Shown here: positions 7,297-63,540 of the stretch, one piece after another
How positions within the stretch are numbered: the first letter of the stretch is position 1
Layout: each line of letters starts with the position of its first letter
The notes under the pieces: generated by a model
Told to the model about the DNA's origin: nothing
What the model saw: only the letters and a program-made list of their open reading frames with translations
The model's database searches: none
Program-made: the position numbers and the translations under genes
Origin: Pollutibacter soli
GTDB taxonomy: Bacteria > Bacteroidota > Bacteroidia > Chitinophagales > Chitinophagaceae
Direction: 5' to 3'
DNA: 63,625 bases
Assembly: GCA_029269725.1 (NCBI GenBank)
Contig: JARJHS010000016.1
Span: forward strand, 1 to 63,625

Positions 7297-7906
7297 AGAG
7301 GAAAAGCCGTTAGACACACTTGCCAGATACCTGCCGGAAGGAACCTACCCGATGGTAGAGCAGTTTCTGCATCAGCACAAAATTCACCTCACTATTACGC
7401 GTGAACGAAGTTCAATACTTGGCGACTACCGGCATGCTGTAAACGGTAAAAATCATCGCATCTCTGTGAATGGCAACCTGAATAGTTACGCGTTTCTGTT
7501 AACGCTTCTTCATGAGATTGCGCACTTGCTCACCTTTCAACAATATGGCAACCGGGTTCAATCGCACGGCAAGGAATGGAAAAAAGATTTTTCGCAATTG
7601 CTCCGCTATTTTCTGCAATCACACACATTTCCCCCCGATATTGAAAATGCTGTAAGGAATTCTTTGAATAATCCTGCTGCAAGCTCATGCGCTGATGATG
7701 ACCTTACGCGTGTGCTTAGGCGTTATGATAAAGATGGCGATCAGCTTTTATTTGTAGAAGACCTGCCGCCGGCGAGTTTATTCAGGATAAAAGGTAATAG
7801 AATATTCAGGAAAGGAGAGAAGATCAGGAAAAGAATTCAATGTACGGAAGTGAAAACAGGGAGGGTTTATTTGTTTAGTCCGGTGTATGAAGTGGAAAAG
7901 GTTTGA
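7289..7906 (+). CDS. SprT-like zinc metalloprotease
   Basis: 205 residues. The HEIAH zinc-binding site is at residues 75-79, and a third likely ligand is His93 in SHGKEWKKDF, as in SprT/WSS1-like domains. The C-terminal part (about 150-205) is a small beta-rich module with GEKIRKRIQCTEV and YLFSPVYEV typical of Bacteroidota SprT-like proteins that lack a zinc ribbon. Role in the cell is not established for this group; eukaryotic relatives process DNA-protein crosslinks. It is the last gene of the overlapping run beginning with the M23-like anchor. Its last codons and stop merge into a repeat island (GTTTGAAGTTGAAAG). Confidence 0.85.
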   Translation: MPKEEKPLDTLARYLPEGTYPMVEQFLHQHKIHLTITRERSSILGDYRHAVNGKNHRISVNGNLNSYAFLLTLLHEIAHLLTFQQYGNRVQSHGKEWKKDFSQLLRYFLQSHTFPPDIENAVRNSLNNPAASSCADDDLTRVLRRYDKDGDQLLFVEDLPPASLFRIKGNRIFRKGEKIRKRIQCTEVKTGRVYLFSPVYEVEKV

Positions 7907-8135
7907 AGTTGAAAGTTGAAAGTTTAAGGTTGAAAATTATTTGATGATTAAATCGTAGAGACGCCCTGCATAGCGTCTCTACGATTTAATCTTTATAATT
8001 GTCACAAGACTACAATGATCTTTTGTTCAGGGTTCGAAATTAATTTAGTCACTCGATGAATACAGTTTAGTCCGGTGTATGAAGTGGAGCAAGTTTAAGG
8101 TTGAAAGTTAAAAGTTGAAGGTTCAAGGCCCCCTG
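7873..8135 (+). repeat. Duplicated gene tail plus word island downstream of the SprT gene
   Basis: The last 24 bases of coding sequence (7873-7896, GTTTAGTCCGGTGTATGAAG...) recur at 8065-8088, and both copies are followed by the same word family (AAGTTGAAAGTTGAAAG at 7905 and AAGTTTAAGGTTGAAAG at 8090). The duplication carries the junction of gene end and word island, so the island was copied as a unit together with the gene end. The 365-base gap to the next gene also contains two palindromes (listed separately). Confidence 0.85.
7946..7991. repeat. Palindromic repeat, GTAGAGACGC type
   Basis: Near-perfect inverted repeat: GATTAAATCGTAGAGACGC, eight-base loop, then GCGTCTCTACGATTTAATC. It belongs to the same family as 38001-38024, 38118-38143, 36117-36150, 8230-8265, 24254-24280 and 61788-61821. 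A long stem such as this could act as a bidirectional terminator or as a REP-like mobile palindrome. Confidence 0.85.
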
Positions 8136-8229
8136 CCGGCACAGGTTATCAATGGTAAGTTATATGTCATCCTTCGCGAGTGACAAATTCAACTTTTCCT
8201 GCAAAATGCCATGCCTGCAATGATTGTTT

Positions 8230-8265
8230 AAATGTAGATAAAAGGCATGCCTTGTATCTGCATTT
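8230..8265. repeat. Palindromic repeat, AAGGCATGCCTT core
   Basis: Arms AAATGTAGATA and TATCTGCATTT flank the core AAAAGGCATGCCTTG. The core is shared with 36117-36150 and 38001-38024. It lies 162 bases upstream of the outer-membrane protein gene. Confidence 0.75.
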
Positions 8266-8427
8266 AGACTTTTGAACCAAACATATTCTAAATTCACACG
8301 CATACGCCGGCTGTTCCTGTTGCCTTTGTACTATTGCCTATTGCCTCTGCTGTCTTTTCATTCCGCTGCCCACTGCCAATTTACCTATATTTACCCCGTT
8401 ATATCATTACCAAAACCAACCCGAATT

Positions 8428-8979: not shown

Positions 8980-8995
8980 GGTTTAACGTATAACG

Positions 8996-9513: not shown

Positions 9514-9568
9514 GGTAGAACGTAAAACGTTCAACGTAAAACGTAAAACGTTCAACGTAAAACGTAAA
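9514..9568 (-). repeat. AACGTAAAACGTTC word array
   Basis: Three tandem imperfect copies of a 19-20 base word (AACGTAAAACGTTCAACGTA on the plus strand) directly upstream of the acetyltransferase start. The same family is found at 39549-39586, 49180-49236, 59700-59740, 61733-61762 and 61925-61961. Confidence 0.85.
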
Positions 9569-9592
9569 AAACCGCTCCCAAAAGGCAGCGGT
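9566..9592 (-). terminator. Rho-independent terminator after the lipocalin-like gene
   Basis: On the minus strand ACCGCTGCC, loop TTTTG, GGAGCGGT, then six T residues. It lies 26 bases past the stop of the lipoprotein gene at 9618-10091 and upstream of the acetyltransferase, separating the two transcripts. Confidence 0.75.
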
Positions 9593-10426: not shown

Positions 10427-10646
10427 ATCATGCCAGTGATTTTACGTGGAAGGTTTTAAGTTGGAGGTTATAAGTTAGGCCCTGTGATTGGGCCTTATCT
10501 CCATTGTATTAAACCGTTTCGGTTTGCGGAAAAACTTCTTTAATCAGGTAACAAATTTGTAAGCAAAATTCCAGACTAAACCATTTAAAAAGCCCGACCG
10601 TTTGCTCTTAGGCTTACTTAAAACATAGAACCTAAAACTTACAACT
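10427..10646 (-). repeat. Inverted word pair between cyclase gene and upstream small ORF
   Basis: At 10449-10486 the plus strand reads GGAAGGTTTTAAGTTGGAGG then TTATAAGTTAGG; at 10615-10650 it reads the opposite orientation (TTAAAACATAGAACCTAAAA, CTTACAACTTTAC). The second copy begins at the stop codon of the cyclase gene. Between them nothing coding was seen. Confidence 0.6.
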
Positions 10647-12326
10647 TTACTTCACCTGAATATGTTCCACTCCACTCCAGTCGTCCGGAACGCCATGATT
10701 GAGAAAATTCAGCGCGTTGGAAATAAATAATTTAGCCGCATGATCCGTGGGGAAATATTCCATCCCTGCCCGGAAGGAACTGATAGCGGATTCAAATGAA
10801 CGGTTCAGGTAAAGATGCATCCCTTCCGTGAAGTAGGGCAGGGTAATGAGTTTATCATTCTTTTCATCGGCTTCGTTGCCGCTGAAGCACTCATGAATAT
10901 TGATCGCCTCGTGTTTACCTTTCAGCCTTACGCGACCCAGGGGTCTGAAATGAAAATGACTGTTGTCAGCGATGTGCTGAAGGGTCGCTTCACTTAATAT
11001 AATGCTGGATTTATAATACTTGGTCAGGCTTTCAATCCGGGAAGCGGTATTAACCGTATCCGAAATAGTGGCAGCGTCCATCCTGTCCTGGTCGCCGGTG
11101 ATTCCCATAATCAACGGGCCCGTATGCATTCCGATCCCGATCCTGATCGGGTCCCGCCCGCTCATTGTCCATCGCTCATTAAAATTCCTGACCTGGACTT
11201 CAATTTCCACTGCGGCAGCCAGGGCATCTCCCGGGCTGCCCGGAAAAATGGCCATGATCGCATCACCTAAGTATTGATTGATAAAACCGGAATGGCTCCT
11301 TATTACCGGACCCATCATGAGATTAAAGTCACACACAAAATTGAAATTCTCTGCCGGCGTCATCTTTTCCGCGATTGTTGTATATCCGCGGATATCAGTA
11401 AAAAGTACGGTCACGATTTTTTCAACCTGGTCGCCTAACCGAACATCAGTTATTACCTCCCGGCCAAGCGAACGTAGAAATTCAAACGGCACAAACTTTC
11501 CGGCGGCGGCATAAATTTTTCGCATGGCTTCTTCCTTCTCCCGCGATTCCTGGATATTCTTTTCATACAGCATTGCACTTTCTATTGTGGTAGAAGATTG
11601 TTGGGCAAGTGTTGTCAGAAGTTTCAGGTCATTCGCATGATACAGGTCAGCTTCTGTGTGCGCCAATACAATCGCACCCATCACCCTACGGTTAACCTTA
11701 AGCGAAGAAAAAATCAATGAATTGACTTCTTCCGCAATTATGCCGGTTTCTTTGAGTTCACTAAGATCGCTCATGATTTCGGACTGACCATCCAGTAAAA
11801 TATTCTGCAGCATCTGGTGATACTCTAACACAAGTCTTTTATTCACCAGCGGCAGACCTTCCGATGCAAGAATATTCAGCTGCTTTGTTTTTTCGTCCCA
11901 GATAATTATCCATCCTGCTGCGAAACGAATAACATGACCTGCTTCTTCAAGGGTAATCTGTGCAATTGCGGCAGGTTCAATAGCCTGCGCCAATTTCCCC
12001 GCAAAATTGAACATCAGGTTAACTTCCTGGTACATATTCAGTACTTCTGCACCTAGTTTCTTTTTTTCCTGTTCCTTGTTCACGATCATCCGAAGCATGT
12101 CTGCTACCAGCAATGCCTGTTCATTGCAGGTTACCCATCCCAGTAAGCTGCTGTCTGATTCTATCGGAATTTTTTCAGCATCGGTCGAATCCGGCAGACC
12201 GAACAGAGCTATTCCCTTCGCATCTTCTATATATAGTGAAGCACCGGGCAAACCCTGGAAGTGATCCAGCAGCCTGCCGAGTTCTTTATTCGACTGAATG
12301 ATGTTTTTAAGACTTAGTTTTCCCAT
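10647..12326 (-). CDS. GAF-domain class III adenylate/guanylate cyclase
   Basis: 559 residues, no signal peptide. Residues 1-90 form a small sensor-like region, about 100-250 a GAF domain, about 260-300 a helical linker, and about 303-480 the class III cyclase catalytic domain: VTVLFTDIRGYTTIAEKM with metal-binding Asp311, QYLGDAIMAIFPG with the second metal Asp355, then RIGIGMHTGPLIMGITGDQ and SDTVNTASRIESLTK. The C-terminal 70 residues are helical, TPR-like. It makes cyclic nucleotide in the cytoplasm; cAMP versus cGMP is not settled by eye. The start is 21 bases past the response regulator, so the two share an operon, with the giant hybrid kinase upstream. The stop codon opens a word island. 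Confidence 0.9.
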   Translation of the reverse strand: MGKLSLKNIIQSNKELGRLLDHFQGLPGASLYIEDAKGIALFGLPDSTDAEKIPIESDSSLLGWVTCNEQALLVADMLRMIVNKEQEKKKLGAEVLNMYQEVNLMFNFAGKLAQAIEPAAIAQITLEEAGHVIRFAAGWIIIWDEKTKQLNILASEGLPLVNKRLVLEYHQMLQNILLDGQSEIMSDLSELKETGIIAEEVNSLIFSSLKVNRRVMGAIVLAHTEADLYHANDLKLLTTLAQQSSTTIESAMLYEKNIQESREKEEAMRKIYAAAGKFVPFEFLRSLGREVITDVRLGDQVEKIVTVLFTDIRGYTTIAEKMTPAENFNFVCDFNLMMGPVIRSHSGFINQYLGDAIMAIFPGSPGDALAAAVEIEVQVRNFNERWTMSGRDPIRIGIGMHTGPLIMGITGDQDRMDAATISDTVNTASRIESLTKYYKSSIILSEATLQHIADNSHFHFRPLGRVRLKGKHEAINIHECFSGNEADEKNDKLITLPYFTEGMHLYLNRSFESAISSFRAGMEYFPTDHAAKLFISNALNFLNHGVPDDWSGVEHIQVK

Positions 12327-12731: not shown

Positions 12732-13021
12732 GTATTCGTGTTTCTTTTTAGTTGTCAGTTGTTGGTTGTAAGTCAGGCAGCAGTGCGCAGGCAGCAGATA
12801 CATTCAAACTCACCTGACATATTCATATCATTTGAACTTGAAAACCTCAATCGCTTTATCCTGATTATTCCTTTTGCTTTTGTTTCTTATTTTGCCTTTT
12901 CCTGACTGTTTTATTTCTTTTCTCATTTCAGTTTTTTGTTTTTCCCAAATACGCCTGATCTCCCAATCGCCGTTTGTTCCTGTTGCCTGTTTACTATTGC
13001 CTGTATTCTGTCCCCTCTCTT

Positions 13022-23869: not shown

Positions 23870-24327
23870 CGGGTTGAGTTGTGATTCTAAAATAAGAAAG
23901 AATTATTGGGAGGGAATTGATTAAAGTCAAAAAAGTTCGGTTCAGAAAAGTTGTCGGTTGTCGGTTGTCAGGAACAGCCTGTTGATCGTTTATAAGGCCG
24001 CGGGAAGCAGATCGGTGCAGAGCGTTTAATTGAACGCAATCAGTTTGGTTTAAGGCAGCAGGCATCCGGTAACAGATATACTCGAATAGAGTACTGTTTA
24101 CGAAAACTGCCGAGATCGTAGAGCTGGCTTTCCGTTTTTTTTATCATAATATATAATGTGAACAGCAGTCAATAATTCCAGGAGAGCCGATCATTTGCCA
24201 GCTGTTTGAGATTGTGCAGGGAAGAAATTGCTCTATGCAAAGTCGGTTATTTTGCAGAGACAAGGATGCTTTGACTCTACAAAAAAACCAAACGAAAAAT
24301 GATGAACGAAAAAAGTTGAACGAAAAA
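23870..24327 (-). repeat. Intergenic gap with GTTGTCGG words, decayed palindrome and AGTTCATAG words
   Basis: 458 bases without a gene. 23946-23988 carries GTTGTCGGTTGTCGGTTGTC on the plus strand; 24254-24280 is a decayed member of the palindrome family (GCAGAGACAAGGATGC...CTCTAC); 24288-24336 carries GATGAACGAAAAAAGTTGAA words that run into the amidase stop codon. Nothing coding was seen. Confidence 0.75.
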
Positions 24328-25935
24328 CTATGAACTATACCTGATCGTCTTCACAAATTCCGGCTTCTTCCGGTTTTTCGAAATCTGCTCATAAGCATAT
24401 GCCAATCCGATCAACCGGCCCTCATCAAGTGATCTCCCGAAAAAACAAATACCCACCGGGAGACCGTTTACCATTCCCAGGGGTACTGTGACTGAAGGAT
24501 AGCCGGTTTTTGCCGCGAAAGAATATCCACCATAACCGGTGAATGCATCACCATTGACAAGATCGATATTCCAGCTGGCGCCATTTGCGGTTATACAAAG
24601 CGCATCGAGATTATTTTTATTCATCAGATCGGTCAGGAATTTTTTGCCGGTTGCCATTTTCGTGATGGCATCTGTATATTCTTTCGATTTCAGATTGCCC
24701 TTTGCTTCGCAGGCTATCAGAATTTCCTGCCTGAACCAGGGCATCGCAGATTCTTCATGGTCATTATTAAACTTTATAACATCTGCCAACGATTTAACTG
24801 ACGCATCCGCGGTTTTTAAATAATGGTTTAAACCGTCTTTGAATTCATATTGAAGTACCAGGTATTCTGCGTCACCGAGTTTGTCATTTTGTTTGTCAAA
24901 TGCAACAGGTACCAGTTTGGCTCCTGCAGTTTTCAGTTGACCGATGGCAGTATTGAACGCTTTATCAACCAACTCATGTCTTTTTACTGAAGGATCATAA
25001 CCGATCCTTTTTCCCTTCAGAAAGTCTGCATCCAGGAATTGAGTGTAATCCGGAATTTTTTTTGATTTCAGGATGGATGTTGTCGGGTCCCTGGGATCAT
25101 CACCGGCAATAGCAGTCAATAGTATCGCTGCATCAGTTACCGTGCGTGCCATGGGGCCCGCCGTATCCTGCGATTTCGAAATCGGGATAATTCCGGATCG
25201 GCTTACCAGTCCTACGGTTGGTTTTATGCCGACAATTCCGTTGATACTTGAAGGGCAGGAGATAGATCCGTCGGTTTCCGTACCAATGGCAACGGCACAA
25301 AGGTTTGCGGCTACAGCCGTACCAGATCCCGAACTCGACCCACAGGGGGAACGATCGAGAACATAAGGATTGAGTGTTTGTCCGCCTCTGCTGCTCCAGC
25401 CACTCGACGACCTGGAAGAACGGAAGTTGGCCCATTCGCTGAGATTGGTTTTGCCCAATATAACGGCACCGGATGCCCGAAGACGGGAAACCAGCCCTGC
25501 ATCTTTTTGCGCTTTATGACCTGCAAGTGCAACAGAACCGGCAGTAGTCTGCATTTGGTCAGCAGTATCGATATTGTCTTTGATCAACACCGGAATTCCA
25601 TGCATTTTGCTCCTGGTCTTACCCGCTTTTCTCTCCTGGTCAAGTTCATCTGCAATGGCCAACGCATCCGGATTCAATTCAATAACAGCATTCAGCTGGT
25701 ATCCGGCCTTGTCGATTTCGGATATGCGTTGCAGATATAACTCAGTGATCTTTCTTGAGGTCAGTTCTCCTGAAGTCATTTTGCTTTGCAATTCATCAAT
25801 GGTGATTTCTTCAAGGATAAAATCTGACCTGACAGGGGATTTTGTTTTATTAAAGTTTTTACTGAAACCTTCAGGCAAAAAACCAATAGCAGTGCCGGTG
25901 AGAATACTGTTCAGGATAAAATTTCTTCTTTTCAT
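24328..25935 (-). CDS. Amidase-signature hydrolase, exported
   Basis: 535 residues. A Tat-like N-terminus (MKRRNFILNSILTGTAIGF) is followed by the amidase-signature domain with the Ser-cisSer-Lys triad: Lys119 in HGIPVLIKDNIDT, the cis-Ser in CGSSSGSGTAVAAN (about residue 200) and the nucleophile Ser224 in GTETDGSISCPSS. It hydrolyses an amide bond, with the substrate not deducible; related periplasmic amidases act on peptides or amino-acid amides. The last two residues (Ser-Ser) and the stop are written by the word AGTTCATAG. The 227 bases upstream hold no recognisable feature. Confidence 0.92.
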   Translation of the reverse strand: MKRRNFILNSILTGTAIGFLPEGFSKNFNKTKSPVRSDFILEEITIDELQSKMTSGELTSRKITELYLQRISEIDKAGYQLNAVIELNPDALAIADELDQERKAGKTRSKMHGIPVLIKDNIDTADQMQTTAGSVALAGHKAQKDAGLVSRLRASGAVILGKTNLSEWANFRSSRSSSGWSSRGGQTLNPYVLDRSPCGSSSGSGTAVAANLCAVAIGTETDGSISCPSSINGIVGIKPTVGLVSRSGIIPISKSQDTAGPMARTVTDAAILLTAIAGDDPRDPTTSILKSKKIPDYTQFLDADFLKGKRIGYDPSVKRHELVDKAFNTAIGQLKTAGAKLVPVAFDKQNDKLGDAEYLVLQYEFKDGLNHYLKTADASVKSLADVIKFNNDHEESAMPWFRQEILIACEAKGNLKSKEYTDAITKMATGKKFLTDLMNKNNLDALCITANGASWNIDLVNGDAFTGYGGYSFAAKTGYPSVTVPLGMVNGLPVGICFFGRSLDEGRLIGLAYAYEQISKNRKKPEFVKTIRYSS

Positions 25936-26475: not shown

Positions 26476-26767
26476 TCTATATGGGCTAAAGCCCAAAATT
26501 CAATATTAATTTATAATCCCCAGGCTGAATCCAGGGGCAATTGAAAATACATTTTTATCAGGGATACAATAAATCTTGTCGCAGTTAAAGCTGCATTTAA
26601 CATGTGTGCGGGCTAACGCTCAGCCAATAATTGAAACTATTACTTACCTCATACCTTTGACCTCATTTCCGCCCTTCGGGCGGCTGGAAACAAAATGGTC
26701 CTACCGGAACATAACCTTGCCTCTGATCGCAATGTTATATGCATTTAACACTCGCGGAGGCTAACTT
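26476..26767. repeat. Composite interspersed element with small hairpins (parts A and B)
   Basis: Part A (26476-26640) is a chain of small inverted repeats: TGGGCTAAAGCCCA, CCCCAGGCTGAATCCAGGGG and GCGGGCTAACGCTC. Part B (26667-26767) opens with the hairpin CCGCCCTTCGGGCGG, continues CTACCGGAACATAACC and ends TCGCGGAGGCTAACTT. Part B recurs twice at 46185-46417. It encodes no ORF and lies in a 346-base gap that ends in GTTGAAAG words next to the stop of the plug-domain gene. Confidence 0.75.
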
Positions 26768-26820
26768 GAAAATTACCACTTAAAACCTTCCACTTTAAAC
26801 TTTACACTTTCAACGGCTGT

Positions 26821-31809: not shown

Positions 31810-31869
31810 ATCGACAGCTTAAAATCGGGTTAATGCTAATTCTTAAAAATAGCATTAAATGTACGAAAA

Positions 31870-32177
31870 TAGGCAATAGTAAGTAGGCAATAGGCAATAG
31901 GAACAGCCGGCTGTTGGCAATGTCAAAGACTGCTAAGGCAACAGGCGCAGGCAACAGATCGGAGCCATCGGATTTATCAATAGTAATCAACTTGTTTTTT
32001 CAGTGGCTTTGACGAAGGGAAAATGTTATAGCCTGTATATAAATGAAAAAGTTCCTGATGGATCAGAAATTCTAATGCAAGTTTAATTTCTGCAATTTGT
32101 TAATGGAATTTGAATTTCATCACTACAAACCAGATACTATAAACTCCTATTGCCTATTGCCTACTTACTATTGCCTA
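31870..32177. repeat. Perfect 33-bp inverted repeat flanking 242 bp
   Basis: 31870-31902 (starting TAGGCAATAGTAAGTAGGCA) and 32145-32177 (starting TCCTATTGCCTATTGCCTAC) are exact reverse complements over 33 bases. The left arm continues into GAACAGCCGGCTG. The right arm ends ten bases before the hydrolase stop codon, which is itself inside the next word copy. The 242-base interior has no credible ORF. It occupies the whole gap between two minus-strand genes. Confidence 0.92.
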
Positions 32178-34352: not shown

Positions 34353-34598
34353 AAAGTTTTAAGTTTTAGGTTTTAAGTTATAAGTAAGAGGATGAAGTTT
34401 TAAAGAGTACTTCGGAAGCGTAAAAAAATGTAGATGAGAATCATTTAGAATATAATACCTGCAGCACTGAGTTCTGTAAAATTTCAATAAATAAATCCGG
34501 TGAAGTATGTTGGCAATTAACAGGCCCGATCCGGATTGAAGTCTTTTATGCAGCTTTCATCACAGTAAAGTGCTTACTTATAACCTAAAACTTACAAC
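34353..34598. repeat. Inverted word pair between YafY-type regulator and DinB gene
   Basis: 34361-34388 (AAGTTTTAGG...TTATAAGTAAG) and 34573-34598 (CTTACTTATAACCTAAAACT, TACAAC) are reverse complements apart from a six-base insertion in the first. The right arm is immediately past the regulator stop; the left arm lies before the DinB start. Between them (34391-34572) nothing coding was seen. Confidence 0.8.
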
Positions 34599-34614
34599 AT
34601 ATTACTTGCATCTG

Positions 34615-36005: not shown

Positions 36006-36150
36006 TTAGGCAATAGTGAGCAGGCAATAGGCAACAGGAACAGCCGGGCAGCAGGCAAAAGGAACTGCCGGCTTTTGCGGGTGAATTTAGTAATTGTCTG
36101 GTGTAACAGATTTAATTGCAGAGGCAAGGCATGCCTTGTCTCTGAAATTA
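36006..36150. repeat. TAGGCAATAG phrase plus GGCATGCC palindrome
   Basis: 36007-36050 repeats the phrase found at 31870 (TAGGCAATAGTGAGCAGGCA, then ATAGGCAACAGGAACAGCCGG), and a degraded second pass follows. 36117-36150 is a palindrome (TGCAGAGGCAAGGCATGCCT, TGTCTCTG) of the family at 38001. Together they fill the 256-base gap; 36205-36245 carries ACTTACCACTTACAACTTTA words that end in the next stop codon. Confidence 0.8.
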
Positions 36151-36227
36151 AAGCAATCATAAATTCATTTGATATCGCGGAAACCTATAAATCCTTCATT
36201 CGCGAACGATAACTTATAACTTACCAC

Positions 36228-36740
36228 TTACAACTTTAAACTCAACTCACTTACCAATTCATACCTCTGCTCCACAACAGGTTTCCCAAATCTTTCCGAT
36301 GGGATAGATTCTGTAAGTACAAAGCCGGCTTTTTTATAAAGGTGTGCTGCCGCGGGTAATTCTGATGAAGTGTACAAAAATGCACGGGTATAATTTCTTT
36401 CACGCATACAATCCAGAAATTCATTCATCCATTTATTTCCGATACCGCGGCCACGCAATTGAGGAGATAAAACAAAATACCTGAGCTGAACCAGTTGATC
36501 ATCGTGATGCAGGAGTAAAAGAAAACCCAGCAATTCTTCCTCGCTTTTGCAAAGCCAGACTTTATCTTTTAATGGATCGTATCGGGAATAGAATTCATCA
36601 AGCGTTGTGTCGACATATTCCATAAACGATTCACCATATCCATATTCCGTTGTATAAATCTTACGATGAAGCTCAGACACTCCAGCTATATCTGAAGGAA
36701 GAAGCTGGTTTGAAAATTTGAGTGTTGACAGCGTTTGCAT
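36228..36740 (-). CDS. GNAT-family N-acetyltransferase
   Basis: 170 residues. Motif A is VLSPQLRGRGIGNKWMNEFL, with the acetyl-CoA loop RGRGIG, and motif B is LYTSSELPAAAHLYKKAGFV. Those two segments give a complete GNAT fold, here of the MarR-associated type. Substrate unknown. The last residues LSLKL and the TAA stop are written by GAGTTTAAAGTTGTAAG, a member of the GTTGAAAG word family, suggesting the original C-terminus was altered. Confidence 0.87.
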   Translation of the reverse strand: MQTLSTLKFSNQLLPSDIAGVSELHRKIYTTEYGYGESFMEYVDTTLDEFYSRYDPLKDKVWLCKSEEELLGFLLLLHHDDQLVQLRYFVLSPQLRGRGIGNKWMNEFLDCMRERNYTRAFLYTSSELPAAAHLYKKAGFVLTESIPSERFGKPVVEQRYELVSELSLKL

Positions 36741-39439: not shown

Positions 39440-39635
39440 GATTGAAAAAATTTTTGCGAAGATAACGGAAGAAGGACGAAGTGCGAACTGCGAAGGCCGA
39501 ATTCAAGGATACAGGATACAGACTACAGGCTTGTAAGAGGGTAGACGGTACGTTAGAACGTAAAACGTTGAACGTAAAACGTTCCCTGCCTCCATTCTCC
39601 TGCCTCCTGCCTATATTTGCGCCTCAATTAATACC
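39440..39635 (+). promoter_or_regulatory. Divergent upstream region of sucC and purine nucleoside phosphorylase
   Basis: The gap holds words GTTAGAACGTAAAACGTTGA (39552 on) and CCTGCCTCCATTCTCCTGCC TCCTGCC, directly followed by a Bacteroidota -7 element TATATTTG at 39612-39619, 17 bases before the phosphorylase ATG. No TTTG was found at the usual -33 distance, so the word region occupies the place of the -33 element. Confidence 0.55.
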
Positions 39636-40599: not shown

Positions 40600-42618
40600 A
40601 TGATAAAATTTCTGCCATTAAAAATTGTTTTCATTTTAATGCTGTTAAGCAGTAATTACGCGCTTGCACAGGTGCCGATCCGGGGTATGCCGCGTTTTGG
40701 TGGTGGTCGTAGTGGCGGTGGAGGCGATTCTCTTCAGTTTGAAAAACGCGATTTCAAAGCAGATACGATCACTGTGCAATACAGGTATCTGGATACGGCG
40801 AGATATTATTTGCTTGATTCATCAATCAGCGATTTTTACAGGCGTATCCCTTTGAAGCCGGAATATATTTACCTGGGTAACAATGGTAATGCCATCCGGA
40901 ATTTTCTCTTCTCACCCATTATGAAACCCGGTTGGGATGCGGGGTTTCATGCATTTGATCCATTCGCGTATACGATTGCGGATACCCGCTTTATGAATAC
41001 GACGCGGCCTTACACAGAACTGAATTATCTGATCGGATCCAAGGCAGAACAACAGATCGGTATTCTGCATACGCAGAACATTATGCCCAACTGGAATTTT
41101 GTCGGGCAGTTCAGGCTCGTGAATTCACCGGGAAGTTTTAATTCGCAGAATACCAATCACCGGAGTTTCAGATTCAATACGGATTATCAGACCAACGACC
41201 AGCGTTATTCCGTTTATTTAATAATTCTGAATAACAGCCTTCAGTCTTCAGAAAATGGTGGAATCACGAGTGATACTTTCCTTGTTAACCAGAACCCGGC
41301 TTATAATGATCGCTTTAATATTCCGACCAATATTGCCGACAGCGTTTTCACTACGAGAAACTTTTTTAATGTCGCACTGCGTACAGGAAATAAATATTCG
41401 GACACAAAAATTTTCCTGCGTCAGCATTATGATTTTGGAATAAAAGACTCCATTGTTACTGATTCGACGGTTCATCGGTTCTTCCTGCCTAAACTTCGAC
41501 TGGAGTATAATTTTGGCTTCAATAAGTACCAGTATAAGTTCCTGGATGTGCAGGGCAGTCTTGACAGTCAGTTCTTTCAAAAGAATTACGACAATTATTT
41601 TACGCCGATTCCGGATACCATAAATTTCACGGACAACTGGAAGGAGATGACCAATGATTTTTCGGTGATCCAGTTTCCGGATTCAAGAAATCCATTGCAA
41701 TTCATCAAGGTGGGGGTGACCCTTCAGAATATCAGGGGAAATTTCGCTGATGGCAGTTCTGATAAATTTTCCACTATGCAACTGCATGGAGAGTACCGTA
41801 ACCGAACGCGTAACCGAAAATGGGATATGCTGCTCAACGGAAGTTTTTTTGCAGGCGGAAGATATACCGGTGATTTTGAAGTTGCCGCCAGGCTTAAGCG
41901 AATGATCAGCCCGAAGATCGGTTACATCGAACTGGGGTTTAATAATGTAAACAGAACGCCATCTTATTTATACGAGCGCCAAACCGGTTTTCCTGTACAA
42001 TTAGCGCCCGGACTGAACAGGGAAAATATCACGAAGTTTTCAGGTATCCTGGAAGTACCACGGTTGCAGATGCAGTTGACCGGATATTACTATCTCGTCA
42101 GCAACTATACTTATTTGGAAAACTTCAACGATGTAAAACAGGCTTCATCGATATTCAATTTTTTGAGGATCGGCGCAAATAAGGTGTTTCGGATCGGAAG
42201 GTCATGGCGATGGTATGCAGATATCTATGTACAAACAAAAGCAGGTAATGCGCCGGTTAATCTGCCGCTCATTTTCACCCGTCAGCGTTTTGCGTACGAA
42301 GGAAAATTATTTAAGAACCTGAATCTTTCCACCGGAGTTGATCTTCGTTACAACACTCCATATAAGGCCGATAATTATTCACCTGTACTCGGCCAGTTTT
42401 TCTTCCAGGATCAGCAATCGATTTCGGTCAGGCCGGATATCGCGCTGTATGTCAATTTCAAGATCATGAAGCTCGCTACGTTCGCCAGACTGGAGAACTT
42501 AAATACACTAAGCTTTAAGTATGGCTTTGGTTTCAAGGACAGTAACCTTGCGGCGGATCTGTATTCTTATCCAGGGTTGGTTTTCAGGTTGGGATTCTTT
42601 TGGGATTTTGTTAATTAG
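40600..42618 (+). CDS. Putative porin (Bacteroidota outer-membrane barrel)
   Basis: 672 residues from MIKFLPLKIVFILMLLSSNY, a signal peptide ending at LAQ. A glycine/arginine-rich linker (FGGGRSGGGGDS) follows, then a long antiparallel barrel with frequent aromatic residues and no plug. LQFEKRDFKADTITVQYRYL and FLSPIMKPGWDAGFHAFDPF match the Bacteroidota putative porin family with Pfam-type Porin_10 layout. In-frame upstream Met at 40471 has no signal peptide and is rejected. The stop is followed directly by GGCAGGAGGCGGGAG words. Confidence 0.85.
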   Translation: MIKFLPLKIVFILMLLSSNYALAQVPIRGMPRFGGGRSGGGGDSLQFEKRDFKADTITVQYRYLDTARYYLLDSSISDFYRRIPLKPEYIYLGNNGNAIRNFLFSPIMKPGWDAGFHAFDPFAYTIADTRFMNTTRPYTELNYLIGSKAEQQIGILHTQNIMPNWNFVGQFRLVNSPGSFNSQNTNHRSFRFNTDYQTNDQRYSVYLIILNNSLQSSENGGITSDTFLVNQNPAYNDRFNIPTNIADSVFTTRNFFNVALRTGNKYSDTKIFLRQHYDFGIKDSIVTDSTVHRFFLPKLRLEYNFGFNKYQYKFLDVQGSLDSQFFQKNYDNYFTPIPDTINFTDNWKEMTNDFSVIQFPDSRNPLQFIKVGVTLQNIRGNFADGSSDKFSTMQLHGEYRNRTRNRKWDMLLNGSFFAGGRYTGDFEVAARLKRMISPKIGYIELGFNNVNRTPSYLYERQTGFPVQLAPGLNRENITKFSGILEVPRLQMQLTGYYYLVSNYTYLENFNDVKQASSIFNFLRIGANKVFRIGRSWRWYADIYVQTKAGNAPVNLPLIFTRQRFAYEGKLFKNLNLSTGVDLRYNTPYKADNYSPVLGQFFFQDQQSISVRPDIALYVNFKIMKLATFARLENLNTLSFKYGFGFKDSNLAADLYSYPGLVFRLGFFWDFVN

Positions 42619-42892
42619 GCAGGAGGCGGGAGCCTGCTTGCCGGCAGGCAGGTGAGCAGGCGGGAGAAGAAGTGAGCAGTCGGCAGTCCCAGGCATGTAA
42701 CCAGAACTCTAAAGGTAAATTGCGGGGAGAGAAGAAAACAACTGAAATTTGGGTCAATCTTTATTCAATTCTAACGTTTTATCACCGGACGAAGCCGGCA
42801 GTTTCTTCTGTCTGCTTGCTCCTTACTTCTGCCTGTTTTAACTATAAACACTAAACTCTTTTAAAAATTTCGATTATTTTTGCTGAATCGGC
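42619..42892 (+). repeat. Gap with GGCAGGAGG words and a -7 element
   Basis: 274 bases. 42619-42690 has AGGCAGGAGGCGGGAGCCTG, CTTGCCGGCAGGCAGG and AGCAGTCGGCAG; 42800-42860 has CTGTCTGCTTGCTCCTTACT. A Bacteroidota -7 element TATTTTTG lies at 42875-42882, 11 bases before the HYC_CC_PP start, without a clear -33 box. Confidence 0.55.
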
Positions 42893-45943: not shown

Positions 45944-46474
45944 AATTCTTTGTCAAAGCAAAACCGTACAAATAGCATGATTTTGAAAAATCAACGTACG
46001 TCAGGTCGGATCTATGGAAAAATTGGCCCATGAATGAACACGTTTCAGGCGATTCAACGTGAACGGCCCCTATCACAACTATTGATGAATTTGACACCCA
46101 CAGAGGTTAGCTTAGAACACATCATCTCAAACCTGCCTCTGCCGGCAGGCAGGCCTTCAACTTTCAACTTTTTCCAATCATTATTTCCGCCCTTCGTGTG
46201 GGTACAAACAGGATGCTCCTGCCGGAGCATGAGCATCGCTTCTGGTCGTAATAAGAGATGAATTTGGCTTTCGCGTGGGCTAACTTATAACTTGACACAT
46301 ATAACCTTCATCTTCCGCCCTTCAGGTGGCTACAAACAGGATGCTCCTACCGGAGCATGGGCGCATCATCTGGTCGCAGTTATAGATGAATCTGGCTTCC
46401 GCAGAGGCTGACTTATAACCTATCACCTGTTATCACCTATAACTTTCAACTTTCAACTTTGCACTCTCAACTTA
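45944..46474 (+). repeat. Word island with two tandem copies of element B
   Basis: 46185-46287 and 46313-46417 are diverged copies (128-base period) of element B also found at 26667-26767: TTCCGCCCTTC, ACAAACAGGATGCTCCT, CCGGAGCATG, then a TGGCTTTCGCG or TGGCTTCCGCA end and GGCTAACTTATAAC or GGCTGACTTATAAC. A partial third copy starts near 46087. CCTGCCTCTGCCGGCAGGCA and CTTTCAACTTTCAACTTTGC words flank it. No ORF of substance. Confidence 0.85.
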
Positions 46475-48635: not shown

Positions 48636-48841
48636 GGCTGGATCAGGCAGGAGGCAGGAGTATGAAGGCAGGAGATTTAGTTTATAGCAGATAGAGATAA
48701 GCACCACTGAATAACACCCGTTATAGCTTAACATTTATCGATCTGACTAACAATTGTAAACTGCAAACTTCCTATTGCCCCTCCCTGTATGGTGAGGAGT
48801 TGCTTAATAGTGTCTCCTTTTGCCTTATTACATTTGCCTCC

Positions 48842-49179: not shown

Positions 49180-49236
49180 TTGGTTTAACGTAGAACGTTC
49201 AACGTTCAACGTTTAACGTTCAACGTTGAACGTAGC
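49180..49236 (-). repeat. AACGTTCAACGT array overlapping the ATP-grasp stop
   Basis: About 50 bases of GTTTAACGTAGAACGTTCAA CGTTCAACGTTTAACG type words, plus strand. The terminal residues YVQR and the stop of the ATP-grasp gene are inside it (codons TAC GTT CAA CGT TGA). Confidence 0.85.
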
Positions 49237-57995: not shown

Positions 57996-58574
57996 GGGGG
58001 AGGCGGGAGAACGGAGGCAGGAGAAAGACAGTAGAAGTGAGTAGTAGCTAGTAAGTAGTAAGCAGGGAACCGCCGGCTAATGTGGATGATAGAATCTTTT
58101 ATCTGGAAAAAAATGCACAGGGCCGCAGGCAATTGACAGCAGATGGGTGCAAGCTGATTTAATATTGACAAAGAATGCCCTTATAAAATAAGATGGTGTT
58201 AGAAAATACGATATTCAAATTGTAAACAGCCGGCTCAAAACATGTAAACCTTCGGTAACTCCCAATAATGAGCAACCTCTAAGAACAATGTGGTAAGCAG
58301 GGAACCGCCGGCTAATCTGGATGATAGAATCTTTTATCTGGAAAAAATGCACAGGGCCGCAGGCAATTGACAGCAGATGGGTGCAAGCTGATTTAATATT
58401 GACAAAGAATGCCTTGATAAAATAAAGATGGTGTTAGAAAATACGATATTCAAATTGTAAGCAGCCGGCTCAAAACATGTAAACCTTCGGTAACTCACAA
58501 AAATGAGCAGCCTCTAAAAACTATGAACTAAGAACTAAGAACTAAGAACTAAGAACTAAGAACTAAGAACTTCC
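57996..58574 (+). repeat. Tandem 235-bp duplication, words and 7-bp microsatellite
   Basis: After GGAGGCGGGAGAACGGAGGC words, a 235-base unit occurs twice (58058-58292 and 58293-58527), nearly identical. It holds GTAAGCAGGGAACCGCCGGC and a gene remnant in frame (VDDRIFYLEKNAQGRR, then QLTADGCKLI and a stop); copy 2 has one A fewer in the A-run, which breaks that frame. It is followed by six copies of AAGAACT (58526-58570) reaching the GCS2 stop. Confidence 0.9.
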
Positions 58575-59687: not shown

Positions 59688-59743
59688 ATTGAAGTTTGGT
59701 TCAACGTTAAACTTTATACGTTCAACGTTGAACGTATTCATAA

Positions 59744-60922: not shown

Positions 60923-61756
60923 ATGGTAAAGACATTGAACCTGATGTATGATACGGTACAGTTAATAGAGAAGTCTTTTCAGTCTGAACTCCTGGAACGG
61001 GAGGTACAGATAGATTTTTATTTTCCTTTGAATGTGCCAGCAGATTATCCCTGGGAACTGTTGCTGATCAATGATGGTCAGGACCTGGTGAAAATGGATT
61101 TTGCGGGTATCCTTGACCGCATGTATGCTCAGCATGAAATCTATCCGGTACTGGCTGTGGGTATATATGCAGGTAAAGATCGTAAGCTTGAATATGGTAC
61201 TGCAAAAGAACCGGATTATCTGAATCGCGGCAGTAAAGCAGAAGCTTACACGAAATTCATCTTTGAAGAACTCATTCCAAATATACGCGCCGTTTCAGGT
61301 ATTCAGAATTTCAGGAACAAATTTTTCTCCGGCTTTTCTCTTGGTGGCCTGATGGCGATGGATATCGTATGGAACTATCCTCAGGAGTTTAAAAGTGTTG
61401 GTGTATTCAGCGGTTCATTCTGGTGGAGAAGTGTGGGTCTGGATGAAGGTTATAATGAAGACACCGACCGCATCATGCATCGCCAGGTAAGAGAAGGAAC
61501 ATTTGCTCCCTGGCTCAGATTCTTTTTCGAAACCGGTGCATTTGATGAAACAGCCGATAGAAACAACAATGGCATCATTGATTCCATTGACGATACCCGC
61601 GCATTGATTGACGAGTTGAAAGCCAAGGGTTATACTTCAGATGATATTTTCTATCTTGAACTACACGATGGGCATCATGATATCGAAACCTGGGGGCGGG
61701 CTTTTCCGGCATTCCTTCGATGGGCTATTGGGTTGAACGTGGAACGTAAAACGTGA
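60923..61756 (+). CDS. Enterochelin-esterase-like alpha/beta hydrolase
   Basis: 277 residues. Esterase D/Fes-like: ELLLINDGQDLVKMDFAGIL, nucleophile in FFSGFSLGGLMAMDIVWNYP, FSGSFWWRSVGLDEGYNEDT, acid region near DETADRNNNGIIDSIDDTRA and His in LELHDGHHDIETWGRAFPAF. No signal peptide is evident, so it is cytoplasmic, though related esterases are often exported. Divergent from the ATP-grasp and GCS2 genes by 228 bases. Last residues LNVERKT and the stop are written by GTTGAACGTGGAACGTAAAACG. An alternative start is ATG at 60944. Confidence 0.88.
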   Translation: MVKTLNLMYDTVQLIEKSFQSELLEREVQIDFYFPLNVPADYPWELLLINDGQDLVKMDFAGILDRMYAQHEIYPVLAVGIYAGKDRKLEYGTAKEPDYLNRGSKAEAYTKFIFEELIPNIRAVSGIQNFRNKFFSGFSLGGLMAMDIVWNYPQEFKSVGVFSGSFWWRSVGLDEGYNEDTDRIMHRQVREGTFAPWLRFFFETGAFDETADRNNNGIIDSIDDTRALIDELKAKGYTSDDIFYLELHDGHHDIETWGRAFPAFLRWAIGLNVERKT

Positions 61757-61961
61757 AACGTTGCGGACGCAGTGATCATAACTGGATGAAGAGACGCGAT
61801 GCATCGCGTCACTACGATTTTACTTGCCAAATGCTGAACTTTAGCGACTGTTTCTACTTACTACTTACCACTCACTACTCACTAAAAAAAATGCGATTCC
61901 GGATACACTCCGAAACCGCAGGTTCTAACGTTCTACGTTAAACGTTCTACGTTGAACGTCT
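61733..61961. repeat. AACGTAAAACG island with palindrome between convergent genes
   Basis: 61733-61762 (esterase end), palindrome 61788-61821 with core GACGCGATGCATCGCGTC, TACTTACTACTTACCACTCA words at 61855, and inverted AACGTTCTACGTTAAACGTT words 61925-61961 that begin at the DUF2911 stop. The words after both stops are in opposite orientation on the plus strand, thus the same in the sense of each gene. Confidence 0.87.
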
Positions 61962-62475
61962 ACTGAACATTAAAGCTCACCGCAGTATTCTCCCATGCCA
62001 GTGTTACTTTGTTGCCCGCAATAGTATAGTTCAGTTTTTCAACCAATGATGGCGTTTTTGCAGGAGCCACTTTTACGCGAAGTGCATCATCTTCCTGTTT
62101 GTAACGGAAAGCACCCCACTGATTGGCGGTTTTATTAAAAATCAGCGTCCACTCGCTCTCGTTAGGAATTGCAAAAAATGCATACTTGCCTTTTGGAAGA
62201 GGCTGTCCGTTAATCTTTACGTCTTTGTCAAACTCAATAGTGGTGGCTTCGTTCGCACCAGCGCGCCATACTTTGCCCCAGGGTTCAAGACTTCCAAAGA
62301 TCTTACGTCCCTTTACTGAAGGCTGACTATAATCTATTGTTATATTAGCACCACCAGCTGTTCCGGTTACCTTAGCAGGAGGACTGGGACGTGCGTCTTT
62401 ATTATCCTGGCCACAGGCACTGAGCCCGATGTACAAAAATGCAGTTACCATTAAGAGTGATAATAACCTTTTCAT
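61960..62475 (-). CDS. DUF2911-family lipoprotein
   Basis: 171 residues. Lipobox LSAC (Cys21) and a short polar linker, then the DUF2911 beta-sandwich: ITIDYSQPSVKGRKIFGSLE, WGKVWRAGANEATTIEFDKD and LPKGKYAFFAIPNESEWTLI, WGAFRYKQEDDALRVKVAP. Function unknown; common in Bacteroidota as a secreted or lipid-anchored protein. The stop codon opens an ACGTTCAACGTAGAACG island. Confidence 0.88.
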   Translation of the reverse strand: MKRLLSLLMVTAFLYIGLSACGQDNKDARPSPPAKVTGTAGGANITIDYSQPSVKGRKIFGSLEPWGKVWRAGANEATTIEFDKDVKINGQPLPKGKYAFFAIPNESEWTLIFNKTANQWGAFRYKQEDDALRVKVAPAKTPSLVEKLNYTIAGNKVTLAWENTAVSFNVQ

Positions 62476-62544
62476 TGTGTCAATTTTTTTGGAAGAGTGA
62501 AAGTATGACTTATAACGTTAAGGTTTTATTTAAATATGATGGAA

Positions 62545-63264
62545 TCAATGGAGGAGTTGGCGCTTGTACAACTGGATCGCGTTTTCCAGGCCAAGGTAGA
62601 GTGCATCGCAGATCAATGCATGACCGATACTCACCTCTTTTAATTCCGGTATATGCTTGCTGAACCATCCCAGGTTATGCATATCAAGATCGTGCCCTGC
62701 ATTGATACCGAGCCCTAATGAATGGGCTGTTGCTGCTGCCGTGGCATAAGGACGAACTGCTTTCTCCCTGTTTGTGCTGAACTCCCGGGCATATCCTTCA
62801 GTGTATAATTCGATCCGGTCGGTTCCTGTTTTTGCTGCGCCGATGATCATGGCTTCCACGGGATCACAAAAAATGGAAGTACGTATACCGGCTTTTTTGA
62901 AAACACTGATCATTTCGATCAGATAATCTTTGTGTTTAACCGTATCCCAGCCATGATCAGAAGTAATCTGCCCCAATTCGTCAGGGACAAGTGTGACCTG
63001 GTCGGGTTGTACTTCGAGCACCAGGTCAACAAATTTTTGTTCACGACAATTCCCTTCGATATTGAATTCTGTCGTGATGATCTTTTTTATCTCCCGTACA
63101 TCTGAATAACGGATATGCCTTTCATCAGGTCGGGGATGAACAGTCACGCCATCAGCGCCAAATTTCTGAACATCTATGGCTGCTTTAATTACATCGGGAT
63201 TGTTTCCGCCACGACTGTTGCGTAATGTGGCGATTTTGTTGATGTTGACGGAGAGTTTGGTCAT
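62545..63264 (-). CDS. pdxJ: Pyridoxine 5'-phosphate synthase
   Basis: 239 residues, normal length. Condenses deoxyxylulose-5-phosphate with 3-amino-1-hydroxyacetone phosphate in vitamin B6 synthesis; cytoplasmic TIM barrel. MTKLSVNINKIATLRNSRGG, GADGVTVHPRPDERHIRYSD, VTLVPDE and NAGHDLDMHN are the family motifs with phosphate-binding and catalytic residues (Glu in VTLVPDE, His in NAGHD). Upstream, in the sense strand, TGACAACTGATAACCGACAA words precede the start. Confidence 0.95.
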   Translation of the reverse strand: MTKLSVNINKIATLRNSRGGNNPDVIKAAIDVQKFGADGVTVHPRPDERHIRYSDVREIKKIITTEFNIEGNCREQKFVDLVLEVQPDQVTLVPDELGQITSDHGWDTVKHKDYLIEMISVFKKAGIRTSIFCDPVEAMIIGAAKTGTDRIELYTEGYAREFSTNREKAVRPYATAAATAHSLGLGINAGHDLDMHNLGWFSKHIPELKEVSIGHALICDALYLGLENAIQLYKRQLLH

Positions 63265-63540
63265 TGGCTGTCAATTGTCGGTTGTCAGTTGTCGGTTATC
63301 AGTTGTCAGGACAGGTGAGGAACCGATGCTGAAAAGTAAAGTTACAGCAGAGTTGGTTATGGTTAGTTGTCGGTTGTCGGTTGCCACAGAACAGGTGAGA
63401 GACTGATGCTGACAACTATGACGGCGAGCATAAAATCTCCTCACCTTTAATTATGTTCGTTGCTATCGGTCTGACAACAAAAACGCGAGAAGAAAATCTC
63501 CACCCATTAATTAAGTTCATTGCATCAGTCTGACAACCTG
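63265..63540 (-). repeat. GTTGTCGG words and a 55-bp direct repeat
   Basis: 63265-63420 has GTCGGTTGTCAGTTGTCGGT type words. 63424-63478 and 63484-63537 are diverged direct copies: GCGAGCATAAAATCTCCTCA or GCGAGAAGAAAATCTCCACC, then TTAATTATGTTCGTTGCTAT or TTAATTAAGTTCATTGCATC and CGGTCTGACAAC or AGTCTGACAAC. Confidence 0.85.

What the first reader, a model, noticed from the sequence alone, without database searches (positions are those of the whole stretch)
7873..63420. Strand-specific word islands tied to stop and start codons
Several families of short words (AACGTAAAACGTT, GTTGAAAGTTTAAGG, TAGGCAATAGTAAG, GGCAGGAGGCGGGAG, GTTGTCGGTTGTC, AGTTCTTAG) fill intergenic gaps. Read in the sense of the neighbouring gene, the purine-rich form follows stops: SprT 7904, cyclase 10647, kinase 13022, amidase 24328, plug protein 26821, hydrolase 32187, YafY 34615, GNAT 36228, sucC 38228, porin 42618, receptor 48635, cupin 48842, PIP 57995, GCS2 58575. 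The pyrimidine-rich reverse complement precedes starts: barrel 8428, RR 12731, DUF2157 23869, paralogue 31809, DinB 34282, OMT 35971, PNP 39636, receptor 46536, pdxJ 63264. A word and its complement at opposite ends of transcripts could pair, terminate transcription, or mark gene borders. I know of no named family with this rule.
Basis: seen in the sequence. Interest (0 to 1): 0.88.

Follow-up and report, generated by a model that had tools for sequence, protein, structure and literature searches.

The report
Outward-pointing seven-base repeats edging genes
Many gaps between genes in this bacterium are edged by short runs of seven-base repeats whose G-richer strand usually runs away from the nearest gene; a similar rule was published in 2015 for one kind of G-rich repeat, but here it holds for many unrelated words, and gap contents often differ completely between sister genomes.

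Summary
The six "word families" are one class: degenerate tandem repeats with a unit of exactly 7 bases, nearly all between genes in this genome. In 60 further stretches (1.2 of 6.1 Mb) 41 of 47 strong arrays obey. The rule follows the side of the gap, not gene sense, and is best measured by G against C rather than purine against pyrimidine.

It is not without precedent: Rehm et al. 2015 (PMC4692102) describe this geometry for GGGNATC-type heptamers of Xanthomonas and Nostoc. New here: about a dozen words (0 of 194 arrays have four GGG runs), a shared inner boundary motif (AACAGCC), arrays that begin on stop codons, same-word pairs within gaps, and gap contents replaced between sister species. 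The suggested pairing of the two ends of one transcript is not supported.

Most likely mechanism (inferred, about 0.35): outward DNA synthesis or copying during repair of breaks inside gaps, with selection protecting the genes. Rivals: mosaic mobile repeats, transcriptional insulation, slippage plus purging. New variant of a known kind.

The parts
7898..7938 (+). heptamer array (GTTGAAA type), begins at the SprT stop codon; strand = G-richer strand
8091..8128 (+). second heptamer array in the same gap
8331..8346 (-). AGGCAAT array before barrel start 8428; further along the G strand follows GGAACAGCCGGC
9515..9569 (.). AACGTAA/AACGTTC array, no G skew
10440..10476 (+). array, inverted same-word partner of 10616-10647
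10616..10647 (-). array touching cyclase stop 10647
12750..12769 (+). short GTTGT-type array beyond response-regulator start 12731
12774..12797 (+). CAGGCAG array, same side of the gap
12977..13004 (-). AGGCAAT-type array after kinase stop 13022
23950..23969 (+). GTTGTCG array followed by AGGAACAGCC, beyond DUF2157 start 23869
24291..24335 (+).
26764..26814 (-). GTTGAAA/AAGTGTA array at plug-protein stop 26821
31867..31901 (+). AGGCAAT/AGTAAGT array; 33 bp at 31870-31902 are repeated exactly, inverted, at 32145-32177
31901..31910 (+). inner boundary motif GAACAGCCGG
32146..32177 (-). inverted copy of the array, 9 nt from hydrolase stop 32187; the orthologous gap of sister genome G033 has no array (139 against 377 bp)
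34354..34385 (+). AAGTTTT array beyond DinB start
34576..34610 (-). array at YafY stop 34615
36008..36038 (+). AGGCAAT array beyond OMT start 35971, followed by GGAACAGCCGG; gap 256 bp here, 65 bp without arrays in G033
36209..36242 (-). array that runs into the 3' end of the GNAT gene and contains its stop codon
38205..38224 (-). short array at sucC stop 38228
39467..39494 (+). array beyond sucC start 39439 (divergent gap)
39506..39531 (+). AGGATAC array, same gap
39554..39612 (-). AGGCAGG/ACGTTTT array before PNP start 39636
42618..42632 (+). GGCAGGAGGCGGGAG at porin stop (two units, below array threshold)
46156..46171 (-). GTTGAAA array in the gap before the receptor gene
46441..46473 (-). 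GTTGAAA array before receptor start 46536
48645..48674 (+). AGGCAGG array after receptor stop 48635
49183..49233 (.). ACGTTGA array in a 57-bp gap (G and C equal); runs over the stop of the gene that ends at 49220; orthologous gap 6 bp in G033
57999..58025 (+). GGAGGCGGGAGAAC array after PIP stop 57995; gap 579 bp here, 21 bp in G033
58042..58065 (+). TAGTAAG array, same gap
58514..58571 (-). AGTTCTT array at GCS2 stop 58575
59699..59735 (-). ACGTTGA array at a gene junction, inside the called 5' end of the GCS2 frame
61732..61761 (+). AACGTGA array over the stop at 61756 (convergent gap, left side)
61851..61884 (-). TAGTGAG array, same convergent gap
61927..61959 (-). ACGTTCA/ACGTAGA array at the stop 61960 (convergent gap, right side)
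63266..63309 (+). GTTGTCG/GTTATCA array at pdxJ start 63264
63366..63383 (+). second GTTGTCG array, same side

Best explanation
Shown: these are degenerate heptameric tandem repeats (the STRR / heptameric-SSR kind) that edge intergenic gaps with their G-richer strand running away from the neighbouring gene, at starts and stops alike. Inferred: they are scars and primers of break repair in gaps. When a gap breaks, both ends are trimmed back; trimming that reaches a gene is lost by selection. The 3' strand pointing into the gap (on each side the G-richer one) is then extended, either by iterative 7-nt slippage or by copying from another array and what follows it (hence AACAGCC after different words), and the two ends are joined. 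That would give outward arrays on both sides, arrays starting on stop codons, facing pairs, a reused genome-specific vocabulary, and gap contents that often differ completely between sister species. Why the unit is 7 and why the outgoing strand is G-rich is not explained; an end-processing preference like that of Chi-type sites (orientation recalled) is a guess. Class and geometry I put at about 0.95; the confidence given here is for the mechanism.
For: Unit 7, intergenic. Gap-sided rule in all gap types and in each of seven word families: AGGC 23/26, AGTTC 8/9, GTTGTC type 6/7, CGTTNTT 6/7, AATAC 6/8, GTTGAAA 12/14, AGTA 11/14. Neighbouring arrays within 300 nt: R-then-Y 25, Y-then-R 3, same direction 17 (60 own stretches and window). 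Same-word inverted pairs within a gap 10/49 against 119/3131 random, p 1.8e-5, and same-word direct pairs 6/49 against 110/3131; one exact 33-bp inverted copy. 5' edges at stop codons 65/187 against 18.4 expected. AACAGCC at the 3' side (from 6 nt inside to 25 nt beyond) of 24/139 non-ACGT arrays against 3 upstream; ACAGCC 26 to 4 over 79 arrays in sister G033. Gap replacement: flanking proteins 96% and 88% identical, gap 282 bp here against 50 bp of nearly all array in G033; a 2-bp convergent gap in G033 in which the array contains both stops; 20 gaps with arrays in either species differ in length by a median of 143 bp. Outward G skew 0-30 nt past convergent stops: 0.130 +- 0.024 here with arrays masked, -0.024 +- 0.040 in congeners.
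Against: No break, end-extension enzyme or repair product was observed. RVT_1 has no match in this 99.99% complete genome, so a reverse-transcriptase version is unlikely. Ku is present here but was not found in G033, which has more of the two words counted (87% complete). Sequence of roughly 60-250 bp between paired arrays is unexplained; the one stretch tested has no other copy in the genome. Arrays do not always go with the longer gap: in the 8 gaps with arrays only in G033, the gap here is the longer one (median 317.5 against 212 bp). The ACGTTGA word breaks the rule in other phyla (7 of 37 outside Bacteroidota obey), and in Chloroflexota 28 of 49 other arrays lie inside called frames. In the 80 loci of other genomes facing pairs are 18 against 7 facing away, with 33 in one direction, weaker than here. 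G+T skew, the RecA preference that I recall, is a weak discriminator (105 of 188). Gain or loss was not polarised with an outgroup for most gaps.
Confidence: 0.35

Rival explanations
1. Mosaic interspersed repeats (BIME-like): non-autonomous modular units with heptamer arms and an AACAGCC inner end are inserted into gaps by a trans-acting transposase. A unit with inverted arms gives the same geometry whichever way it lands.
For: Inverted same-word arms; shared inner motif and, in G033, a segment of about 35 nt after it that recurs (by eye, at about eight sites, with related forms at more); in 5 gaps with arrays only here the gap is longer than in G033, median 256 against 31 bp; RAYT-type Y1_Tnp genes present, 4 matches here and 7 in G033.
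Against: 39 of 49 non-palindromic array pairs in one gap are not same-word inverted; no second copy of the sequence between the arms of the 31867-32177 unit; arrays also occur alone in gaps of 25-57 bp; Y1_Tnp numbers overlap those of congeners, 0-4.
Confidence: 0.25
2. Transcriptional insulation by selection: RNA that enters a gene from the gap on either strand is C-rich and G-poor, as in Rho-utilisation sites (recalled), so arrays in that orientation are kept because they stop read-in and antisense transcription.
For: G against C is the best discriminator of four tried; arrays are densest in convergent gaps (1.67 per kb, tandem 0.92, divergent 0.54); intrinsic terminators tend to be fewer after array-bearing stops (4/63 against 46/296, p 0.07).
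Against: The skew at convergent stops is not seen in 33 stretches from 15 congeners, so it is not a general need of these bacteria; it does not explain the unit of 7, the inverted copies or AACAGCC; the reverse-strand control for terminators shows a similar difference (3/63 against 32/296).
Confidence: 0.2
3. Ordinary slippage plus purging: heptamers arise by polymerase slippage (an idea cited in PMC4692102), and orientations that harm translation or extend reading frames are removed.
For: Heptameric SSRs are over-represented in many bacteria according to PMC4692102; the C-richer strand has no stop in any frame in 38 of 89 stop-side arrays, against 13 of 89 for the G strand, so the wrong orientation would often extend genes.
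Against: The same words recur at many unlinked sites, an irregular array is copied exactly in inverted form, and different words share one boundary motif; start-side arrays obey the rule although stops have no obvious role there.
Confidence: 0.15

Closest known systems
GGGAATC / GGGGA(C/T)T heptamers of Xanthomonas and Nostoc (Rehm et al. 2015, PMC4692102; abstract and sections 3, 13, 14, 16 read)
   Same: Heptamer, intergenic, closer to the 5' neighbouring ORF irrespective of ORF orientation, sense strand within 50 bp after stops, non-coding strand before starts, inverted pairs exist, under-represented between divergent ORFs
   Different: Here a dozen or so words, 0 of 194 arrays with four GGG runs, shared AACAGCC boundary; 7 of 20 array gaps have arrays in both sister species, against 83% of repeats kept between two Xanthomonas (close relatives)
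TAACTGA repeats of Beggiatoaceae, Cyanobacteria and some Bacteroidetes (MacGregor 2015, PMC4679880; abstract and sections 10, 23 read)
   Same: Heptamer direct repeats, mostly just before starts in one orientation in the main species; the GTTATCA-type unit at 63266-63309 is the same word up to phase and strand; other heptamers mixed in some Bacteroidetes
   Different: One word studied there, many here; no general rule at stops in the parts read
Four-unit heptanucleotide elements of Geobacter metallireducens (PMC2700814; passages found by term only)
   Same: Dispersed heptanucleotide tandem repeats, 49 places, between and within genes
   Different: One GC-rich word, also inside genes; no orientation rule in the passages seen
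STRR repeats of heterocystous cyanobacteria (definition recalled; Calothrix heptamers cited in PMC4692102 section 3)
   Same: Heptamer tandem repeats
   Different: Orientation relative to genes not compared here
REP/BIME mosaic elements with RAYT transposases (search listing and abstract starts only)
   Same: Dispersed intergenic mosaics of modules
   Different: No palindrome was shown to be the repeating module here; link to a transposase not shown

Membership tests
Heptameric SSR / STRR class | Tandem unit of exactly 7 | tested here: met
Heptameric SSR / STRR class | Mostly intergenic and dispersed | tested here: met
   58 intergenic, 1 coding in 1.26 Mb
Heptameric SSR / STRR class | Length change in 7-nt steps between strains | not tested
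   no strain pair at hand; sister G033 is too distant
Rehm-type oriented G-rich heptamers | G-rich strand nearer its 5' ORF irrespective of ORF orientation | tested here: met
   41/47 and 110/141
Rehm-type oriented G-rich heptamers | Able to form G-quadruplex (four G runs) | tested here: not met
   0 of 194 arrays with four GGG runs; 32 of 194 with four GG runs; no folding test
Rehm-type oriented G-rich heptamers | Preference for four units | not tested
   arrays are degenerate; unit counts not tabulated
Rehm-type oriented G-rich heptamers | Same gene context in sister species | tested here: inconclusive
   7 of 20 array gaps have arrays in both species, but the two genomes are at 66-78% nucleotide identity
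TAACTGA repeats | The word TAACTGA in direct repeats | tested here: inconclusive
   single GTTATCA-type units inside GTTGTCA arrays
MITE | Terminal inverted repeats | tested here: inconclusive
   10 of 49 pairs in one gap
MITE | Conserved internal sequence in many copies | tested here: inconclusive
   one unit tested against the whole genome: only its ends match elsewhere
REP/BIME | Palindromic unit repeated in mosaics | tested here: inconclusive
   the one palindrome tried, GAACAGCCGGCTGTTC, is at 1 site in the genome; other palindromes not searched
REP/BIME | RAYT-type transposase in the genome | tested here: met
   Y1_Tnp 4 matches, one with a stop inside; also in congeners
Product of a telomerase-like or other reverse transcriptase | RVT_1 protein in the genome | tested here: not met
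   no match at E 0.001 among 7 candidates, genome 99.99% complete

The most novel reading that the evidence does not exclude
A 7-nt end-writing activity, spread over many phyla but with a vocabulary of its own in each genome, extends the 3' ends of breaks in intergenic gaps with G-rich heptamers, in the same geometry as a telomere fusion, so that gap DNA is repeatedly erased down to the gene edges and rewritten.
Probability: 0.1. Interest if true: 0.9.

Novelty: new variant of a known kind. Interest (0 to 1): 0.52.

Why it matters
Over-representation of heptamers in bacteria and their odd orientation are on record (PMC4692102) with no function or cause settled there. That case was discussed in terms of G-quadruplexes. 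Here the same geometry holds for many words without GGG runs, in all gap types, and for non-bait arrays in loci of other phyla (28 of 37), so quadruplexes cannot be the general reason. The shared boundary motif and the replaced gaps between sisters turn the question into a testable one about how intergenic DNA is made and renewed.

Tried and rejected
Reverse transcriptase as generator: no RVT_1 match here. Ku/NHEJ: matched here, in none of the other 36 same-genus genomes searched, G033 included (many are incomplete); left open, not adopted. RAYT: counts not distinctive. Exact palindrome GAACAGCCGGCTGTTC as the unit: one site. Pairing across a transcript: 1 of 26 inverted, 2 of 26 direct. Quadruplex: 0 of 194 with four GGG runs. 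Purine, A-against-T and G+T skew as the rule: weaker than G against C.

All-or-none presence in the genus: I first thought so, because AACGTTNAACGTTNAACGT is in 2 of 99 genomes (own included) and 13 congener stretches had one strong lag-7 array. A larger sample (33 stretches, 561 kb, 15 congeners) showed 10 strong intergenic lag-7 arrays with other words, and AGGCARNAGGCARNAGG is in 13 of 99, several with one hit. So the vocabulary, not the phenomenon, is genome-specific. Orientation in congeners: 10 of 13, p 0.09.

Other phyla: the first undivided count over the 80 loci gave no rule, 57 of 104. I then split off the bait word: other arrays 48 of 64, bait-word arrays 24 of 66. The split was made after the first result. 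The Bacteroidota group contains 11 loci of JAATGW, which appears to be the same genome as G033 (identical array flanks in L139 and L229, seen by eye). Phylum labels were given by me from record titles.

Sampling: the 18 further G033 contigs were mostly chosen because they had matches to window arrays, so they are enriched for arrays. Array thresholds were varied (8-14) and the threshold differs between counts. G against C was picked after comparing four measures; G033 (36 of 45) and the other-phylum loci are later checks. Arrays with zero G skew were dropped from the orientation counts (other phyla).

Confidence in the mechanism went from 0.37 to 0.35.


Full report
What is there. The six word families of the finding are one thing. 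In the window, stretches that match themselves at a fixed offset (18 of 21 bases) occur only at offsets of 7, 14, 21 and 28 among 2-29, and 43 of 50 rows of Tandem Repeats Finder have a period of 7, 14 or 21. GTTGAAA/GTTTAAG, AACGTAA/AACGTTC, TAGGCAA/TAGTAAG, GGCAGGA/GGCGGGA, GTTGTCG and TTAGTTC are all heptamers. In the window plus 60 stretches of 20 kb from the same genome (1.26 Mb; the genome is 6.12 Mb) strong lag-7 arrays are 58 between genes and 1 within; the highest count between genes at a lag that is not a multiple of 7 is 8.

Of 14 stops and 9 starts, 21 have an array within -30..130 nt. At 20 of the 21 at least one array has its G-richer strand pointing away from the gene; by purine content this is 15 of 21. 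The amidase stop is the exception; the porin stop has the word but in a shorter run than my threshold, and the cupin stop shows none.

The rule in the genome sample. Outside the window, arrays lie nearer to the gene on the 5' side of their G-richer strand in 110 of 141 cases (threshold 9) and 41 of 47 (threshold 14); in the window 23 of 26 and 8 of 10. At threshold 9 outside the window it holds in divergent (20 of 24), convergent (38 of 43) and both kinds of tandem gap (27 of 38, 25 of 36). So the rule is about the gap: whatever the sense of the genes, the strand that leaves the gene is G-richer. Seven word families were tested one by one, with 6/8 the weakest and AGGC (23/26) the largest. Arrays touch stop codons: 65 of 187 begin between -25 and +12 of a stop, against 18.4 from random placement and 15 with the strand flipped. 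At starts they keep back: 3 begin within 10 nt, 11.6 expected; most lie 10-90 nt away. Convergent gaps are richest (1.67 per kb), divergent poorest (0.54).

Structure of the islands. Neighbouring arrays within 300 nt face each other 25 times, face away 3 times and run the same way 17 times (60 stretches and window); in the 80 loci from other genomes the figures are 18, 7 and 33. Within one gap, non-palindromic arrays share a word in inverted form in 10 of 49 pairs (random 119 of 3131) and in direct form in 6 of 49 (random 110 of 3131); across one gene 1 and 2 of 26. At 31870-32177 a 33-bp irregular array is repeated exactly, inverted, about 240 bp away; the sequence between has no other match in the genome beyond the array ends. 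On the G strand, arrays of different words end in AACAGCC: at 24 of 139 arrays without the ACGT word, against 3 upstream and 3 in reverse. In the sister genome G033 the motif is followed by a recurring segment of about 35 nt, by eye at about eight sites with related forms at more. Arrays with the ACGT word do not share this boundary.

Comparison with relatives. Sister genome G033 is collinear with window 29.4-45.9 kb at 66-78% nucleotide identity. Of 54 orthologous gaps found between the sampled parts, 34 have no array in either (median 59 and 51 bp), 7 have arrays in both, 5 only here (median 256 bp here, 31 in G033) and 8 only in G033 (median 317.5 bp here, 212 in G033). So arrays do not simply mean a longer gap. 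In several gaps the content is different altogether: between genes whose proteins are 96% and 88% identical, 282 bp here against 50 bp of nearly all array in G033; a 2-bp convergent gap in G033 in which the array contains both stop codons; a 57-bp gap with an array here against 6 bp. Near sucC, 11 of 11 congener loci lack arrays (12 genomes searched). The word AACGTTNAACGTTNAACGT is in 2 of 99 genomes, own included, and AGGCARNAGGCARNAGG in 13 of 99. Yet congeners have heptamers with other words: 10 strong intergenic arrays in 561 kb (54 kb intergenic) from 15 congeners, against 58 in 206 kb intergenic here. So each genome seems to have its own vocabulary.

Other phyla. In them lag 7 dominates (178 strong arrays, bait included; at most 16 at a lag that is not a multiple of 7). 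Over all arrays the rule is not seen, 57 of 104. Split afterwards, arrays that were not the bait word follow it in 48 of 64 cases, 28 of 37 outside Bacteroidota, and the bait word does not, 24 of 66, 7 of 37 outside Bacteroidota. For this near-palindromic word G skew is a poor guide to direction, and frames that stay open through its C strand blur gene ends, but it remains an exception. In Chloroflexota 28 of 49 non-bait arrays lie inside called frames, so 'intergenic' is not shown there.

Is the skew just normal for gap DNA? At convergent stops, 0-30 nt, congeners show none (-0.024 +- 0.040) and this genome does even with arrays masked (0.130 +- 0.024); 30-160 nt before starts it is 0.024 +- 0.015 against 0.068 +- 0.008. 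Within 30 nt before starts both are skewed alike (0.184 and 0.163), a general feature. So the skew at stops goes with the islands; the congener sample is small.

How it may work. The geometry is that expected if DNA is added to, or copied from, the 3' ends that face a break inside a gap, after trimming that can go no further than the genes. It would put the same strand outward on both sides whatever the sense of the genes, begin arrays at stop codons, give facing arrays, and replace gap content between species. It is inferred, not shown. No enzyme is identified: this complete genome has no RVT_1 match; Ku is here but not found in G033. The rivals are mosaic mobile repeats, selection for C-rich incoming RNA (insulation), and slippage with purging; the evidence for and against each is in its entry.

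What is known. Rehm et al. 2015 (PMC4692102; abstract and sections 3, 13, 14 and 16 read) report for GGGAATC and GGGGA(C/T)T heptamers that repeats are almost exclusively closer to the 5' neighbouring ORF irrespective of ORF orientation, within 50 bp of stops on the coding strand and of starts on the non-coding strand, and cite earlier work for heptamer over-representation in many bacteria and for a slippage idea. MacGregor 2015 (PMC4679880; abstract and sections 10, 23) describes TAACTGA repeats in Beggiatoaceae, Cyanobacteria and five Bacteroidetes, mixed with other heptamers in some. Geobacter metallireducens has four-unit heptanucleotide elements (PMC2700814, passages). In seven searches of the held library, of which I saw the listings and read only the papers named, I saw no paper on a many-word vocabulary, the AACAGCC boundary or replaced gaps; most subscription papers are not held.

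Verdict. A real and strong pattern; its core rule is published for one kind of word; the extension to many words without GGG runs, the modular boundary and the turnover between sisters make it a new variant worth following. Gene boundaries rest on my own gene caller and on about 20% of the genome.

Noticed in passing
window 58058-58525: A 235-bp unit in two tandem copies (95% match) within the PIP-GCS2 gap, which is 21 bp in sister G033.
   Followed up: partly
window 46185-46419: A 128-bp unit in 1.8 tandem copies (81%) in the gap before the receptor gene, between two heptamer arrays.
   Followed up: no
L021 16558-19482: A Y1_Tnp (RAYT-type) gene about 17617-17958 lies between gaps that share a 120-bp repeat at 92.5% identity, like a REP/RAYT locus.
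   Followed up: no
L003 12348, L035 12550-12695, L043 585, L052 6864-14839: Another repeat style near AACAGCC: CACAGAG, CGCAAAG and CGCGGAG words with other spacing.
   Followed up: no
L005 1829-2491 and 11 other gaps (in L007, L022, L031, L032, L034, L035, L050, L060, L062): A dispersed intergenic repeat family linking 12 gaps by BLAST, listed pairs mostly 77-152 bp.
   Followed up: no
L293 (G000:C32:518875-519405): Ku is matched in this genome and in none of the other 36 same-genus genomes searched, many of them incomplete.
   Followed up: no
L222-L241 (sister genome G033): Islands there look more conserved and modular: array, then AACAGCC, then GGCGTTTGGAG-type or AGTGNNN modules, repeated in one direction.
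   Followed up: partly
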